Below, one piece after another: positions 15,912 to 51,809 of a stretch of DNA of 64,000 nucleotides. The translations under genes were made by a program, and so were the position numbers. Within the stretch, counting starts at the first letter, position 1. Each line of letters opens with the position of its first letter. The notes below the pieces were generated by a model, which made no database searches, had not been told where the DNA came from, and worked only from the letters and a program-made list of their open reading frames with translations. The stretch is from Nakamurella sp. PAMC28650 (GTDB lineage Bacteria; Actinomycetota; Actinomycetes; Mycobacteriales; Nakamurellaceae), in NCBI RefSeq assembly GCF_014303395.1, contig NZ_CP060298.1, positions 2,480,001 to 2,544,000 on the forward strand, read 5' to 3'.

Positions 15912-17932
15912 GGGGCCACCTTCGTGAGGCCTTCTGCGATCCGGGCGCGCTGGGCCACCGTCGTACGGGCATCGAGTGCCGCGATGGCGCGGCCGAGCGA
16001 CAGGTAGACGTAACGCCCGTCGGGGCTGGTCAGCAACGGCTGCCCCAGCAGCGGGACGAGGGCGTCGGTCCACTGCCGACCGCCGTCCGGCAGGCTCGCG
16101 CGATCGATGGTGACGCCGACGAAGCCGATGGCCGCCAGGTAGTGGACCAGGGTGGTGGGGGCGGACTGCACCAGGTGGGTGGGCCAGTCGGTCTGCACCG
16201 GGCCGGCGATTCCGCCGGCCGAGAATCGCAGCTGCGAGGACTGCAGCCAGAGCGCCAACTGGGCACCGGTGGCGGGGGCGTCGGCCGCGCCGGAGTGGGT
16301 GAACGGCACCCATGGCAGCTGGAAGATCATCGAGCCGGCCGGCTCCCGGCGTTCGATGCCCTGCACGAACTGCCGGTCCGACGCACTGCCGGCGGCATTG
16401 GCCCGGTAGTCCGGCACGGCCCCGGTCAGCGACTGGTCGCCGGCACCGATCAGCAGCACCAGGACGGCCAGGGCCGGTAGCGCGCCACGGGCGAATCGGC
16501 CGACAGTGGGGCGCCCGCCGGTGGACGAGGACGCCCGGATCCGTCCGGCCACCCGTTCCAGCACCAGTCCCGAGGCCGCCAGGGCCGGCAACGCCAGCAC
16601 GATCGAGATCCGGCCCCAGCCGCTGAAACCGCCGGCCAGCAGCGAGATGATCGTGCCCGGACCGCCGAGTACACCGAGGCAGAAGATCACCAGGCCCAGG
16701 ACGGTCATCTCGTTCAGCAGCCGGATCCGGTGCACCCGGTCGGGCGACGGCTCCGACGTCCGGTACCGACCTGTCAGCGCGGTGAGCGCCACCCCCATGA
16801 TGACCAGCAGCCCGAACGCCGCCACGAGCCCGAGCGCCGGGGTCTCGCCCGGTAGCGGGTACCCGGAGTCGTAGGCGGCCCGGAAGGAGGCCAGGAAGGG
16901 CAGCGGCTCGCCGGGCGGCGGTAGCACCAGCGCGGCGAACTTCATCGCATAGGTCTCGGAGCCGGGCGTTGACGGACCCGTCGGCGCCCCCCCGGCCCAC
17001 GACGAACGGGCCAGGGCGGGCGCGGCGGCCAGCAACGAGGCACCGGCCAGCACCGCCAGCGCCACGCACGTCCCGCCCAGCGGCCGGACCGTTCGCGAAC
17101 GGATGAAGCCGGCCAGCCCACCGGTGATCAGCAGCAGTACGGCGAAGAGCAGGTAGTCGCCGCCGCTATAGGCCACCAGGGCCAGGATCGCGGCCGTGCC
17201 TGCGCCCCGGCCCGTCAGTGCGGCGAGCACCGGATGGACATGAAGCCGGCGGCCCCAGAGCGGCTCGGCGCGCATCGCGCGCACCACCAGCAGCATGATC
17301 AGCGGCACGGTGGAGTAGGCCGACAGGAAGATCTGGCTCTCGTTGTGCAGGAAGTGGTACGGGGCGACCGCGAACAGCACGGACAGCACCACGACGACGA
17401 CGGGGCTCAGGCCGCAGGCGCGGAAGAACGGCACGGCCGCCACGGCGGCGAGCAGGAACCCGAGCAGGAAGAAGACGTTGAACGCGACCGCCCAGTCGTG
17501 GGTGAAGAGTCCCAGCAGCTTGATCACCACGGCGTGCAGATCTCCGGGTGAGGTCGGGTAGGCGTACCGCTGACCGAAGGGCACCCCGAGATCGGGTTGG
17601 TAGTCGTACCAACCGGTGGTCAGGACGTTCTTGAAGTATCCGGCGTTCGCCAGTGCTCCGCCGGAATACCAGAAGGGCACCGACAGGTCGGCCTGCCACA
17701 GCCGCATCATCAGGGTCAGCACGACCGCCGTCAGCCCGGCGCTGGTCGCGTAGGGGATCCACCGGCGCGCAGTGCCGCCGGTCGGCGGGGCCGGCTCGGT
17801 CGGCGGGGCCGGCACGGTCGGCGGGGTCGACTGGGACAGCCGGCAAGACTCGGGAAGGGAGGGGGTCGGGGACTGCGCCGGTACTGGGGAGTGCGGCGCC
17901 GTCGGGGGCTGCGGGGGTGTCGGGGGCTGCAT
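15908..17932 (-). CDS. Large polytopic membrane protein, GT-C/YfhO-like (tandem paralogue)
   Basis: 674-residue paralogue of the protein encoded next to it. It shares VPFWYSGGALANAGYFKN, GWYDYQPDLGVPFGQR, VAPYHFLHNESQIFLSAYS, the helix pattern and a soluble tail with SLPDGGRQW. The N-terminal 55 residues are Pro/Thr/Ser-rich, encoded by GC-rich near-repeats around 17780-17830, and probably disordered in the cytoplasm. In the first loop the Asp of the neighbour's YSGDG is replaced (YSGGA), so the two may differ in catalytic competence or substrate. The ATG at 17932 gives a sensible start; the stop at 15908-15910 overlaps the next start by ATGA. Confidence 0.8.
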   Translation of the reverse strand: MQPPTPPQPPTAPHSPVPAQSPTPSLPESCRLSQSTPPTVPAPPTEPAPPTGGTARRWIPYATSAGLTAVVLTLMMRLWQADLSVPFWYSGGALANAGYFKNVLTTGWYDYQPDLGVPFGQRYAYPTSPGDLHAVVIKLLGLFTHDWAVAFNVFFLLGFLLAAVAAVPFFRACGLSPVVVVVLSVLFAVAPYHFLHNESQIFLSAYSTVPLIMLLVVRAMRAEPLWGRRLHVHPVLAALTGRGAGTAAILALVAYSGGDYLLFAVLLLITGGLAGFIRSRTVRPLGGTCVALAVLAGASLLAAAPALARSSWAGGAPTGPSTPGSETYAMKFAALVLPPPGEPLPFLASFRAAYDSGYPLPGETPALGLVAAFGLLVIMGVALTALTGRYRTSEPSPDRVHRIRLLNEMTVLGLVIFCLGVLGGPGTIISLLAGGFSGWGRISIVLALPALAASGLVLERVAGRIRASSSTGGRPTVGRFARGALPALAVLVLLIGAGDQSLTGAVPDYRANAAGSASDRQFVQGIERREPAGSMIFQLPWVPFTHSGAADAPATGAQLALWLQSSQLRFSAGGIAGPVQTDWPTHLVQSAPTTLVHYLAAIGFVGVTIDRASLPDGGRQWTDALVPLLGQPLLTSPDGRYVYLSLGRAIAALDARTTVAQRARIAEGLTKVAP

Positions 17933-17936
17933 GCGG

Positions 17937-18920
17937 TCAGCGCACCGGCTTCTGGGCGGCGCGGAGCAACCCGGCGGCGGTCGCGGCGATGCCGGCGGGC
18001 AGCGTGGTCAGCAGCCGGCGGTCGATCTGCGGCCAGACGACCGACCGGAACCGCAGGTCCCGCACCTGGAACTGGGCGTTCGCCGAGCTTCCCAGCACCA
18101 CCGGGGGCGGTCGCTTGCACACCTGTCGGCAGGTCGCGATCAGGCTCGCGATGGTGGTGCCCTGTTGCGAGGCGAGCAGTTTGACGATCGGGGTACCCAC
18201 GGGATGGCCCGCCGGTTGCCGGAGGCGGAGCATGTCGGCGATCATCGCCGCGCAGTCGTCGACGTAGAGGTAGTCGCGGATGGTGTCGAGGGAGACGTAG
18301 ATCGAGATCGGCTGCCGGGTGATGCTGCCACGGCACAGCGCGCTGATCAGGCCCTGCGCCTTCGCGGGGTTCTGCCCCGGACCGTAGAGGTTGGCGATCC
18401 GGCCGATCTGGACGGTGTCGCCGGTGCGTTGCGCGTACTCCAGCAGGGCATCCTCGGCGGCCAGCTTGGCCCGGCCGTAGTCGGAGATGGGTGCGGCCGG
18501 GTCGAGTTCGGACTGGGGACCGTCGCCGGCTCCGGCGTACAGCCCGCCGGCGGAGGACGCCAGGAAGAAGGTGCCGCGACCGGTGATCCTGGGCCGCCGC
18601 GCCAGCCGGTCCAGGAAGGCGGAGAGCGTGGCGACCTCGCGGGCCAGGTCGGAGGCGGAGGTCCCGGTGACACCGGCACCGGCGGCCCACACCACCTGCG
18701 ACGGGAGGTCGAGCCGATCGGCCGCTGCGGTCAGCCGGTCCAGGCCCCGGTCGAGGTCGTCGGCGGTGGAGGGACCCGTCCACGAGATCTGTTGCGCCAG
18801 CACCGGTCCGGCCCCTGCGCGTCGGAGCGTGCCGGTCACGGCGCTACCGAGCAGGCCGCCGGCACCGACCACCCAGGTGGCGCTCTGACCGGCTTCCGCG
18901 GCGGGAGCTTGATGGATCAC
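17937..18920 (-). CDS. NAD-dependent epimerase/dehydratase family protein
   Basis: 327-residue SDR-superfamily protein likely acting on a nucleotide-sugar. The Rossmann loop WVVGAGGLLGSAVTG is at residues 16-30, a Ser-rich strand FFLASSAGGLYAG carries the catalytic Ser, and Tyr-x3-Lys is in ISDYGRAKLAAED. RDYLYVDDCAAM resembles the substrate-side motif of nucleotide-sugar epimerases. The C-terminus ends in a helical segment rich in Ala. It starts at GTG overlapping the upstream GtrB-like stop (GTGA) and ends 5 bases before the next membrane gene. It may supply the sugar used by that transferase, which is inference. Confidence 0.83.
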   Translation of the reverse strand: MIHQAPAAEAGQSATWVVGAGGLLGSAVTGTLRRAGAGPVLAQQISWTGPSTADDLDRGLDRLTAAADRLDLPSQVVWAAGAGVTGTSASDLAREVATLSAFLDRLARRPRITGRGTFFLASSAGGLYAGAGDGPQSELDPAAPISDYGRAKLAAEDALLEYAQRTGDTVQIGRIANLYGPGQNPAKAQGLISALCRGSITRQPISIYVSLDTIRDYLYVDDCAAMIADMLRLRQPAGHPVGTPIVKLLASQQGTTIASLIATCRQVCKRPPPVVLGSSANAQFQVRDLRFRSVVWPQIDRRLLTTLPAGIAATAAGLLRAAQKPVR

Positions 18921-20035
18921 GGAACCGGGTGCGAGCTGTCGTTCCCGACCGTCGAGCGTAGCGCCCGCTCGCCGGCCGCGGGCTCGTCCGGTCTGCGGCT
19001 CCTCGTCGCGGGGCTCCCGGGCGAGGTGTCGACCGGTCGGCCGAGCGGCCCACTCTGCGGATCGCTGACGATCAGGTACAGGGGGCGACCCATGGCCATC
19101 TTCACCGCGACGCCGACGTACTCGGCGATCACCCCCAACGAGAACAGGATGGCACCGCTGCAGACCAGCAACACGACCATCAGCGAGGGCCAGCCCGGCG
19201 GCAGGTCGACCTTCCAGAACAACGAGGACGCGATGAAGTACACCGCCAGCAGCAGACCGCCCACGGCGACCACCAGCCCGAGCAGGCTGACCAGCCGCAG
19301 CGCCCTTGTCCCGCTGGAGAGCACCATTCGCCAGAAGTGCGAGAACAGCGTCCGCACCGAGTAGCCGGACGGCCGCCCGCCCTCGTCGCGTAGTTCCACC
19401 GGGCAGGTGGTGACCTTCTGGGCCACCCAGCTCAGCGCCACGTCGAGGTAGACGCCGGCCCCGGCGTAGGCGGCGACGCTACGGCCGACCTCGCCCAGCA
19501 CCAGCCGCAGGCTCTGGTACTCGGTGGCGTCGGTACCGCTCGTCGAGAGTCGCAGCAGTCGTTTCGACATCCGGGACCCGATGTTGCGCAGCACGCCGTG
19601 CGGCGGACGATTGGTCGGCCGCGCGTACACCACGTCGGCCCTGGCCGCCATCGCGACGTCGAGCATGGCCGGGATCGACGCAGGGTCGTGCTGGCCGTCC
19701 TCGTCCATGGTGACGATCCAGTCGCCGCCGGACGAGGCCATGCCGGCCAGCGTGGCCGGGTGCTGCCCGAAGTTGCGGCTGAGCCAGAGCGGCCGCACGA
19801 CGTCGTACCTCTCGGCCAGATCCCGCAGGACGGCCGCTGATCCGTCCGGACCGTTGTCGTGGACCAGCAGGATCTCGGTGACGCGGAGCCGATGACCGTC
19901 CGGGCTCAGGACGTCCTGCATCAGGGGTTCCAGCTCGGTCAGCAGTGCGGCCAGGGTGCGTTCGCCCTGGTAGACCGGGATCACCACCGAGATCGAATGC
20001 GGGCGTCTCGCGCCGCCCTCGCCAATGGAATCCAT
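18917..20035 (-). CDS. Polyprenyl-phosphate glycosyltransferase (GtrB/ArnC-like)
   Basis: 372-residue GT2 enzyme of the dolichol-phosphate-mannose-synthase type. Cytoplasmic catalytic part: ISVVIPVYQGERTLAALL, ILLVHDNGPDGS, ATLAGMASSGGDWIVTMDED with the metal-binding DED, and QHDPASIP. Two membrane helices follow at about residues 245-270 and 285-310, as in GtrB/ArnC enzymes that load a sugar onto undecaprenyl phosphate. The last 55 residues are polar and Arg/Pro-rich. ATG 20035 is chosen; a nearby ATG at 20039 is out of frame. First gene of a four-gene minus-strand operon with the epimerase and both GT-C-like proteins. Confidence 0.9.
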   Translation of the reverse strand: MDSIGEGGARRPHSISVVIPVYQGERTLAALLTELEPLMQDVLSPDGHRLRVTEILLVHDNGPDGSAAVLRDLAERYDVVRPLWLSRNFGQHPATLAGMASSGGDWIVTMDEDGQHDPASIPAMLDVAMAARADVVYARPTNRPPHGVLRNIGSRMSKRLLRLSTSGTDATEYQSLRLVLGEVGRSVAAYAGAGVYLDVALSWVAQKVTTCPVELRDEGGRPSGYSVRTLFSHFWRMVLSSGTRALRLVSLLGLVVAVGGLLLAVYFIASSLFWKVDLPPGWPSLMVVLLVCSGAILFSLGVIAEYVGVAVKMAMGRPLYLIVSDPQSGPLGRPVDTSPGSPATRSRRPDEPAAGERALRSTVGNDSSHPVP

Positions 20036-48377: not shown

Positions 48378-49678
48378 GTCCCCGAGAAGATCCTCGCCGA
48401 CGCCCCGCTCGGGATGCCGCCTCCAGCGGCACTCCGGCGGGGCGCTCGGCTGATGACGGCCACCTGGAGGGTGCCCCCTCCGACGCGCCGTTCGGTGCCG
48501 TTCGCCGCAGCGGTTCGACCGCGCGCCGCCCGGATATCCGGGGCCGGCGGCCCGACCGTTCGGACTCCGGCGATCGACGCGGTGACGGCTCCCGCGGTGA
48601 CAGCTCGCGCGGGGACTCTGCTCGCGGAGACAGCTCGCGCGGGGACTCTGCGCGCGGTGACGGCCCGCGCAGCGAGGCCCGATCAGCGCCCGCCCGTAGC
48701 GCCAACCGGGTACCGGACCCGACCACCCAGGCATTGTCGACGCCGCGCAGCCGCCGTGCCGAGCAGGCTGCGGCCGACCGTCAACGCACCTCTCCGGGCA
48801 ATTCGGCTGCGACCACCGAGCCGACCGCCGAGGCCGAAGAGGGCGTGCTGACCGACAAGTCGAGCCGGATCGTCGCTGCACACCGGTTGCTGCGCAAGCC
48901 GCGTCGCGCCGAGGCCGGGGAGTTCCTGGCCGAGGGAACGCAGGCCGTTGCGGAAGCTGTGGCCGCCGAACTGCGGAACCCGGGCACGGTCAAGGAGATC
49001 TACCTGACCAAGGACGCCGGTCTGCGCAACGTCGAGCTCATCCGGGCTGCGTTCGCCGCCCGGATCGAGGTCACCCAGGTGACGGACCGCGCCGCCGCCG
49101 CCCTGTCGGACACCGTGTCGCCCCAGGGCCTGGTGGCCCGCTGCGCCATGACGCTGGCCGATGTCGGCGAGGTGATCGCCGCGGAACCGCGCCTAATCGC
49201 CGTCCTGGTCGAGACCAACGACCCGGGGAACGCCGGCACGATCATCCGGCTGGCCGATGCCGCCGGCGCCGATGCCGTGATCTTCGCCGGGGAATCCGTC
49301 GACCCGTTCAACCCGAAGGCCGTCCGTGCGTCGACCGGGAGCCTGTTCCACCTCCCGGTCGCCCGTGCCGCCGAGGTGGGCGAGCTGCTCATGCAGCTGT
49401 CCGAAGCCGGCCTGTCCGTACTCGCCACCACCGGTGGGGGTGCCAACACCGACCTCGACACGGCCACCGATGACGGCATCCTCGACCTCCCGACGGCCTG
49501 GCTGTTCGGCTCGGAGGCCCATGGTCTTCCCGAGGAAGTGATTGCAGCAGCGGACGAATCGATCAGCGTGCCGATCTACGGTGCGGCCGAGTCGCTGAAC
49601 CTGGCCACCGCAGCCGCGATCTGCCTGTACGCCAGTGCACGCGCACACCGGGCCGAGCGTTCAGCCCCCACGCCCTAG
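48374..49678 (+). CDS. TrmH/SpoU-family rRNA methyltransferase with long basic extension, probable CTG start
   Basis: RNA 2'-O-methyltransferase of the TsnR/SpoU group, in its usual place after rplT. SPOUT motifs: [34 protein letters not shown], and [16 protein letters not shown] near the C-terminus. The frame stays open to 48374 with GC-rich coding usage, yet no ATG, GTG or TTG occurs in it before TTG 48734. CTG 48374 overlaps the rplT stop as CTGA and has AGAAGGA about 6 bases upstream, so I take it as start, giving 434 aa. Residues 69-105 repeat RGDS/RGDG units, a basic disordered tail that may bind RNA. A start at TTG 48734 would give 314 aa. Confidence 0.8.
48581..48660 (+). repeat. In-gene 30-base repeat coding for RGDS units
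   Basis: The 22-base block beginning GACAGCTCGCGCGGGGACTC occurs at 48599-48620 and again at 48629-48650, a 30-base period, flanked by diverged copies. It encodes the RGDS/RGDG repeats of the methyltransferase extension. Confidence 0.85.
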
Positions 49679-49724: not shown

Positions 49725-49804
49725 GCGTGGATCAACTTCGCAGGCATGGGCGAAAGTGACGACTCCTGTCCCTCCAGTCCCAAAATAGCGAAGTTGATCC
49801 ATGC
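49725..49804. repeat. Palindromic intergenic element B (copy of element A, inverted)
   Basis: TGGATCAACTTCGC (49728-49741) is perfectly complementary to 49788-49801, and the arms extend to 17 bases with one mismatch. The inner segment on the minus strand reads GACTGGAGGGACAGGAGTCG, matching element A after manA. It separates the methyltransferase gene from the convergent transporter. Confidence 0.85.
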
Positions 49805-49906
49805 AGCCCGAACTGGATCCGCCGAAGCGCCGCCAACCTACCGGGAGCGCCGCCGGGCCTGCAGCAGGACGACCGCGCTCAGGACGGCCAGACCACCGGC
49901 GATCTG

Positions 49907-50830
49907 TCAGAGCGTGAGCTGCTCGTGGTAGATCAGGGCAGACGTCAGGGCCGTCACCACGGGTTCGATGCACGACAGGATTGCCGCGGCAGACGGTCCG
50001 ACCAACCGCAGCCCGGCAAGAAAGGTCACGATCGCGACCACCGTGGAGACCATCGAGAAGAGCAACAACCACCACCAGCCGGCCGCCTGCCGGGGCAGGT
50101 GCAGGGTTCCGGTCGCCGCGGCGAAGCTGCCGAGGCTCACGCCCGCTGCGGTGCAGATCATCGCAGCCGCCAGGAACAGATCGAGGTCGGCGGGAAGGGA
50201 CGACGCGACCGTGATGTAGATGGTGTAGGTGACGGCGGCACCCAGTCCCATCAGCACCCCGGCCAGCGCCCACCCACCGGCGCTGCCGCCCCCTTGCAAC
50301 AGCAGCACCAATCCGACACTGGTCGAGCCCAACGCCAGAAGCTTTCGCAGAGCCAGTGTTTCGCGCCGCCTGGCCAGCGCCAGCAGGAACACCAACGCCG
50401 GGTAGATGTACAGCAGTTGGGCCACCACGGCGGCACCGAGCTTCGTCAGCGCCCCGAAGTAGAACCCAGACTGCAGGGCGTAACCGACAGCGCCGAGACC
50501 GACGCAGATCAGGATCGTGCGGCGGGCCGGCATCGGCGGTCTGCGTACCGCGACCACGATCCAGAACACCACTGCCGCGATGACGAACCGGGACGAGAGT
50601 AGTGACGGCACCGACCATCCCGCGGCGAACGACTCCTTCGCGAAGACGGCGGCCAGTCCGAATGTGATGCCCGAGACCACGCAGAAGACGACGCCGGCGC
50701 GCGGGAAGCTGTGCGGTCCGACCGACCCCGACCCCGACCCCGACTCGGACGACGTCGGGTCCACCCGTGGCGTAATGGAAGCATCGGCGTTGGCAGGGAC
50801 GGTATCGATGGCAGCAGAGCGTTCGGGCAC
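49907..50830 (-). CDS. EamA/DMT-family transporter, truncated by in-frame TGA
   Basis: Drug/metabolite-type membrane transporter with two EamA repeats. VVSGITFGLAAVFAKESFAA, VGYALQSGFYFGALTKLGAA, VTYTIYITVASSLPADL and SCIEPVVTALTSALIYHEQL are visible, nine hydrophobic helices in all. The stop TGA (49909-49907) falls after EQLTL. The same frame then continues QIAGGLAVLSAVVLLQARRR to a TAG at 49840-49838, which is the missing tenth helix. So this is either a recent nonsense mutation, readthrough, or a sequencing error. GTG 50830 is taken as start because codons upstream look non-coding and an inverted repeat lies there; ATG 50887 is the alternative. Divergent from the LysR gene. Confidence 0.78.
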   Translation of the reverse strand: MPERSAAIDTVPANADASITPRVDPTSSESGSGSGSVGPHSFPRAGVVFCVVSGITFGLAAVFAKESFAAGWSVPSLLSSRFVIAAVVFWIVVAVRRPPMPARRTILICVGLGAVGYALQSGFYFGALTKLGAAVVAQLLYIYPALVFLLALARRRETLALRKLLALGSTSVGLVLLLQGGGSAGGWALAGVLMGLGAAVTYTIYITVASSLPADLDLFLAAAMICTAAGVSLGSFAAATGTLHLPRQAAGWWWLLLFSMVSTVVAIVTFLAGLRLVGPSAAAILSCIEPVVTALTSALIYHEQLTL

Positions 50831-50835
50831 AACTT

Positions 50836-50883
50836 CAAAGGTAGGACCTGACGATCCATCGGGGTAGCCTGCACTTACCTTTG
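50836..50883. promoter_or_regulatory. Inverted repeat between transporter and LysR genes (candidate LysR site)
   Basis: CAAAGGTA (50836-50843) and TACCTTTG (50876-50883) are perfect complements 32 bases apart in the short divergent region. LysR tetramers commonly bind two such places. This supports regulation of the transporter by its neighbour. Confidence 0.5.
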
Positions 50884-50903
50884 ACATCCATAGGAGATTC
50901 CTT

Positions 50904-51809
50904 GTGATGACGCTGCACGAACTGAGGTGCTTCATTGCGGTCTACGACGGTGGCTCGTTCACCGCTGCGGCCTCGACCCTGGGCCTCGCGCAGCCGTCGG
51001 TCTCCGAGCAGGTGCGTTTGCTGGAGCAGGGTCTCGGTACGGTACTCTTCCAACGGGCGGGCCGCGGACTGCTCCCCTCCGAAGCGGCCAAGGTGCTGAG
51101 AAGCCATGCCCAGCAGACGCTGAACGCCGCCCAGGCCGCAGTGGCCGCGGTGACGTCGGTCCAGGAGGAAGTGTCGGGCACCATCAGGTTCGGGGTCTTC
51201 GGTACGTCGCGGCTCTACCTGGACGTCGATCTCGTGGGCGATGTCCTGGCCCGCTATCCGGACGTCCGGATCGAACTGATCGGGCAGAATTCGATGGACG
51301 TGCACGAGCAGTTGCGTCGAGGTCGCTTGGACGCCGCGATCATCGCGCTACCGGTGGACGACACCGGACTGGCGGTGACCCCGATCATGCGTGACGAGGT
51401 GGTGCACGTCAGCGCGGTACCGGAGAGGGTCCAGCGGCCGGTCACCGCAACGGTTCTCGCTTCCGCACCGCTGGTGCTGTCCGAGGCCAGCTGGGGCAAC
51501 AACGATTCCACCCGGCGGCAGCTGGCCCGGGCGGTGCAGTCGGTCGGCGGCACCCTGACTCCGCTGGTGGACGTGGAGGACATCGAGACCGCCCTGGACA
51601 TCGCCGCGACCGGCCGCGCCGATGCCATCACCGCCCGCGGACTGCTGAAGCGGATGGGGGATCGCGTTCCGCCGAAGCTGCGGTGGGTGTCATTGCGTCC
51701 CAGAGTCTTCGACGAGTTTGCCATCGTCGTGCGCCGGGACGTCCCGCTGTCCAAGGCGACTCAGGTGGTCATCGAGTTGGCCATCGCCAGGATGCAGGCG
51801 ATCCGGTAG
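50904..51809 (+). CDS. LysR-family transcriptional regulator
   Basis: 301-residue regulator. The winged helix-turn-helix lies at residues 3-60 (LHELRCFIAVYDGGSFTAAA, LAQPSVSEQVRLLEQGLG, VLFQRAGRGLLPSEAAKVL), then a linker helix and a periplasmic-binding-protein-like effector domain (GTIRFGVFGTSRLYLDVDLV). Start at GTG 50904 or ATG 50907; AGGAG at 50892-50896 fits both. Divergent from the EamA transporter, its probable target. Effector unknown. Confidence 0.92.
   Translation: MMTLHELRCFIAVYDGGSFTAAASTLGLAQPSVSEQVRLLEQGLGTVLFQRAGRGLLPSEAAKVLRSHAQQTLNAAQAAVAAVTSVQEEVSGTIRFGVFGTSRLYLDVDLVGDVLARYPDVRIELIGQNSMDVHEQLRRGRLDAAIIALPVDDTGLAVTPIMRDEVVHVSAVPERVQRPVTATVLASAPLVLSEASWGNNDSTRRQLARAVQSVGGTLTPLVDVEDIETALDIAATGRADAITARGLLKRMGDRVPPKLRWVSLRPRVFDEFAIVVRRDVPLSKATQVVIELAIARMQAIR

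What the first reader, a model, noticed from the sequence alone, without database searches (positions are those of the whole stretch)
49838..49909. In-frame TGA removes the last helix of an EamA transporter
After EQLTL the frame stops at TGA, then continues 22 sense codons (QIAGGLAVLSAVVLLQARRR and two more residues) to a TAG. These form the tenth helix that EamA proteins need. A single substitution explains it. The TGA is followed by C, a context that is relatively leaky, so low-level readthrough could also make a full protein.
Basis: partly seen in the sequence, partly recalled or inferred. Interest (0 to 1): 0.65.

Follow-up and report, generated by a model that had tools for sequence, protein, structure and literature searches.

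The report
Recently truncated EamA transporter gene
In this actinobacterium (genus probably Nakamurella), one of about a dozen EamA-family transporter genes has had a tryptophan codon turned into a stop, cutting off its last membrane helix; this is an ordinary, apparently recent loss-of-function mutation, with no evidence that the stop is read through.

Summary
The EamA gene on the minus strand stops at TGA 49909-49907, and 22 sense codons follow to a TAG at 49840-49838. Those codons are the real C-terminus. With the TGA read as a residue, the Pfam EamA match grows from profile positions 2-117 to 2-133 of 135. A low-confidence AlphaFold model shows ten helices with the TGA at the start of the tenth, and its best PDB match is the transporter 5i20. 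The nearest orthologue (same genus, same gene order, 76% identity) has TGG (Trp) at this codon and nearly the same tail. All 27 aligned relatives continue through the site. One G-to-A change therefore explains the stop. The tail has diverged under the same constraint as the body, so the stop is recent or the tail is still translated. Of about 50 window segments compared with the sister genome, only this gene has an internal stop, which argues against a generally poor sequence. The genome encodes SelB and tRNA-Sec, but no unusual structure follows the TGA and no relative has Cys there. Readthrough is possible but has no supporting evidence. Verdict: an ordinary recent nonsense mutation, low interest. 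Noted beside it: a 74-bp palindromic repeat family expanded in only two genomes of the genus.

The parts
49907..50935 (-). EamA-family (DMT) transporter gene as it stands, stop TGA included. The ATG at 50935 overlaps the divergent LysR gene; the more likely start is GTG at 50830, where the orthologue's reading frame begins
49907..49909 (-). premature stop codon TGA; the nearest orthologue has TGG (Trp) here
49841..49906 (-). 22 sense codons of the former C-terminus, transmembrane helix 10 and basic tail (QIAGGLAVLSAVVLLQARRRSR)
49838..49840 (-). TAG, presumed original stop codon
50904..51809 (+). divergent LysR-type regulator gene, intact; same arrangement in the sister species, so probably the regulator of the transporter (inference)
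48734..49678 (+). convergent neighbour, RNA-methyltransferase-like gene (named by its sequence, not by a family search), conserved in order in the sister species
49728..49801 (.). 74-bp palindromic repeat beyond the TAG; not part of the gene and absent at this spot in the sister species

Best explanation
The gene encodes a ten-helix EamA/DMT transporter, probably an exporter of small metabolites, paired with a divergent LysR regulator. In this lineage a single G-to-A change turned a Trp codon (TGG) at the start of helix 10 into TGA. Translation stops there, giving a nine-helix protein that most likely does not fold or transport properly, so this is a young pseudogene or loss-of-function allele. 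Shown: the stop, the conserved tail, Trp in the nearest orthologue, open reading in relatives. Inferred: loss of function, direction of change, regulation by LysR, substrate class.
For: Stop and tail. Pfam EamA match 2-117/135 without the tail and 2-133/135 with it, 100.9 versus 110.7 bits. The orthologue in genome G001 ends GWQIAGGVAVLGAVVLLQARRRTS with TGG at the site and has the same methyltransferase-EamA-LysR order. All 27 aligned relatives have a sense codon at the site (W, L, V, A, T, M, F, I or S) and sequence continuing after it. Tail pN 0.115 and pS 0.606 against body pN 0.137 and pS 0.512. Among 23 EamA domain matches in the genome only this one contains a stop. Best-HSP comparison with the sister genome shows no other internally broken gene in the window. 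The model has ten helices with the last at 342-364 and the TGA at residue 343; the best PDB matches are the transporters 5i20, 7paf and 6i1r.
Against: No second strain of the same species was available, so the change could be a sequencing error or be confined to one isolate. The tail is only 22 codons, and no helix-deletion data were found to prove that the nine-helix form is inactive. The AlphaFold model is weak (mean pLDDT 62, and about 45-55 around the last helix).
Confidence: 0.78

Rival explanations
1. The TGA is read through at low level, with Trp inserted by near-cognate tRNA-Trp, so that some full-length transporter is made and the gene remains functional at reduced dose.
For: The tail keeps body-like constraint. 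TGA is the leaky stop, with Trp inserted when it is decoded at low frequency, and in-frame stops in bacterial genes that keep dN/dS below 1 are reported as widespread (PMC7918605). Trp is also the residue in the nearest orthologue.
Against: A recent stop predicts the same tail conservation. The stretch after the TGA folds no better than shuffles (z = 0.95 and 0.72). The stop is seen in one genome only, so there is no evidence that it has been maintained. The same paper holds that many such events are short-lived and that most do not involve functional recoding.
Confidence: 0.1
2. Sequencing or assembly error at one base; the real gene is intact.
For: A single-base difference in an otherwise well-preserved gene; no reads or second strain could be consulted.
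Against: The genome is one contig, 100% complete with 0.18% contamination, and the other window genes compared with the sister genome show no comparable defect. From general knowledge, residual errors in finished assemblies are more often indels than substitutions.
Confidence: 0.1
3. Selenocysteine is inserted at the TGA.
For: The genome encodes a SelB match above cut-off (257.4 bits against 242.25) and a tRNA-Sec above cut-off (78.6 bits) about 1.5 kb apart, so it is a likely selenocysteine user.
Against: No structure stronger than shuffles after the TGA. No relative has Cys or a stop at this position. Transporters of this family are not known selenoproteins (own knowledge).
Confidence: 0.01
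4. The nine-helix protein is a functional, selected variant.
For: The rest of the gene is intact and its LysR partner is present.
Against: No relative ends at this position, and the matching solved folds align over nearly the full length of the full-length model.
Confidence: 0.01

Closest known systems
EamA family (PF00892), drug/metabolite transporter superfamily; structural representative PDB 5i20 (YddG, name from own knowledge)
   Same: Two EamA domains, ten predicted helices, best Foldseek hit of the full-length model.
   Different: The gene as it stands ends before helix 10.
In-frame stop codons in otherwise conserved bacterial genes (Belinky et al. 2021, PMC7918605)
   Same: Single nonsense substitution with downstream coding sequence still showing the imprint of purifying selection.
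   Different: Seen in only one genome here, so persistence of the stop cannot be shown.
Bacterial selenoprotein UGA recoding
   Same: In-frame UGA in a genome that has SelB and tRNA-Sec.
   Different: No downstream structure stronger than shuffles and no Cys in relatives.

Membership tests
EamA / DMT transporter (as the ancestral full-length gene) | Two tandem EamA domains over the Pfam cut-off | tested here: met
   Two stretches, 110.7 bits with cut-off 28.2
EamA / DMT transporter (as the gene stands) | Complete second EamA domain, ten helices | tested here: not met
   Profile match ends at 117/135; model helix 342-364 lies almost wholly beyond the TGA at residue 343
Unitary pseudogene / nonsense allele | Stop absent from orthologues, homologous coding sequence continuing past it | tested here: met
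Unitary pseudogene / nonsense allele | Product non-functional | not testable with these tools
   Needs a transport or complementation assay
Stop-codon readthrough gene | Stop conserved between genomes, with a conserved downstream frame | tested here: not met
   No relative has a stop at the site
Selenoprotein | SECIS stem directly after UGA, and Cys in homologues | tested here: not met
   Folds no better than shuffles; no Cys among relatives

The most novel reading that the evidence does not exclude
A TGA at the start of helix 10 acts as a dose-limiting stop: leaky Trp insertion restores the residue found in the nearest orthologue and keeps a LysR-paired transporter at very low level.
Probability: 0.05. 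Interest if true: 0.45.

Novelty: new member of a known kind. Interest (0 to 1): 0.12.

Why it matters
Mainly an annotation point: the gene should be marked as truncated or a pseudogene, and its transporter role in this species should not be assumed. If readthrough were shown, it would be a clean natural test of TGA-to-Trp leakage in a high-GC actinobacterium, because the orthologous residue is itself Trp.

Tried and rejected
Selenocysteine: machinery is present, but there is no unusual structure after the TGA and no Cys. A second in-frame TGA reported in an EamA match of genome G004 lies upstream of the real start, not inside the gene. Other stops flagged in window orthologue alignments lay ahead of gene starts, in an inter-gene gap, or at an ordinary variable C-terminus (17913-18944). 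A genome-contig scan with the window protein found nothing; with the sister protein it found four distant relatives. These were partly selected by a GWQIAGGV pattern, so their Trp is not independent evidence. phmmer against the PDB gave no hit. No paper was found on loss of the tenth helix. A first alignment script used the wrong strand for some loci and was replaced. One fetch of an annotated region with a placeholder accession returned an error and carries no information.

Full report
Observation. The minus-strand open reading frame 50935-49907 ends ...SALIYHEQLTL and TGA (49909-49907). The same frame continues for 22 sense codons, QIAGGLAVLSAVVLLQARRRSR (49906-49841), to TAG at 49840-49838.

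The tail belongs to the gene. Pfam places two EamA stretches on the protein. Without the tail the second domain stops at profile position 117 of 135; with the TGA read as a residue it runs to 133, and the score rises from 100.9 to 110.7 bits. Hydropathy shows a strong hydrophobic segment at residues 340-361. An AlphaFold model built from four sequences, of moderate to low confidence (mean pLDDT 62), shows ten membrane helices by my count, some of them broken. The last is at 342-364, with the TGA at residue 343, the first turn of that helix. The model's best match in the PDB is 5i20, followed by other transporters of the same fold. Entry 5i20 is YddG by my own knowledge.

Relatives. The window lies in a single-contig genome of 5.63 Mb. 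The genus is probably Nakamurella: relative G002 has 6,060,298 bases, which is the size of the N. multipartita chromosome by my own knowledge. Of 17 genomes of the genus, five (this one included) carry a close homologue. The nearest, in G001, is 76% identical and lies in the same order: RNA-methyltransferase-like gene, EamA, divergent LysR. Its codon at the site is TGG and its C-terminus is GWQIAGGVAVLGAVVLLQARRRTS. Across the 27 aligned relatives the residue at the site is variable (W, L, V, A, T, M, F, I, S), but every one continues through it. One G-to-A change in TGG is the simplest route to the stop.

Age and selection. Between the window and G001, the 22-codon tail has pN 0.115 and pS 0.606; the 255-codon body has pN 0.137 and pS 0.512. 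The tail has thus been under protein-level constraint for most of the time since the split. Either the stop is young or the tail is still translated. The data cannot separate these, but the first needs no further assumption.

Data quality. The window was compared with four 20-kb stretches of G001, keeping the best non-overlapping matches, about 50 segments. This gene alone has a stop inside a conserved region with matching sequence on both sides. The other flagged stops lie before gene starts, in a gap between genes, or at a variable C-terminus. Of 23 EamA domain matches in the whole genome, only this one contains a stop. A single-base error cannot be excluded without reads.

Recoding. The genome has SelB and tRNA-Sec above their curated thresholds, about 1.5 kb apart, so selenocysteine had to be considered. 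The stretch after the TGA folds no better than shuffled sequence, and no relative has Cys at the site. General leaky readthrough with Trp is biochemically plausible. Belinky et al. [quoted passage not shown] They also say that many such events are short-lived and that most do not involve functional recoding. TGA followed by C is a weak argument by itself.

Gene start. The ATG at 50935 would make the gene overlap the divergent LysR gene, which starts at 50904. The orthologue's protein begins at a GTG that aligns with GTG 50830 in the window. The present product is therefore probably about 307 residues rather than 342.

Conclusion. This is an ordinary, apparently recent nonsense allele of a LysR-paired EamA transporter, in a genome with about a dozen EamA genes. 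Loss of function is likely but untested.

In passing. A 74-bp palindrome lies 36 bp past the TAG (49728-49801) and folds far better than shuffles as DNA (z = -5.2). DNA similarity finds about 40 places in this genome. Its arm TGGATCAACTTC occurs 106 times in this genome and 94 times in G001, but at most twice in each of the other 15 genomes of the genus; the reversed control gives zero. The orthologous gap in G001 has no copy but has a strong terminator-like hairpin. No Y1 transposase (PF01797) is found in the genome. Rfam shows no significant match.

Noticed in passing
window 49728-49801: 74-bp imperfect palindrome with arms TGGATCAACTTCGC; about 40 places found by DNA similarity in this genome and a similar expansion in the sister genome G001 (arm counts 106 and 94), but at most two arm matches in each of 15 other genomes of the genus. 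It is absent at the orthologous site in G001, there is no Y1 transposase in the genome and no significant Rfam match. It looks like a recently spreading non-autonomous repeat.
   Followed up: partly
L039, L045, L047 (repeat copies): Some copies carry an extra arm about 19 bp outside the 74-bp core (for example tgcgaagttgatccacgc), so the family has a simple and an extended form.
   Followed up: no
G000:C1:5354149-5355177 and 5356678-5356769: SelB-like gene and tRNA-Sec about 1.5 kb apart, so this organism is probably a selenoprotein maker.
   Followed up: no
window 50830-50935: The ATG start of the EamA frame overlaps the divergent LysR gene; GTG 50830 is the likelier start.
   Followed up: yes
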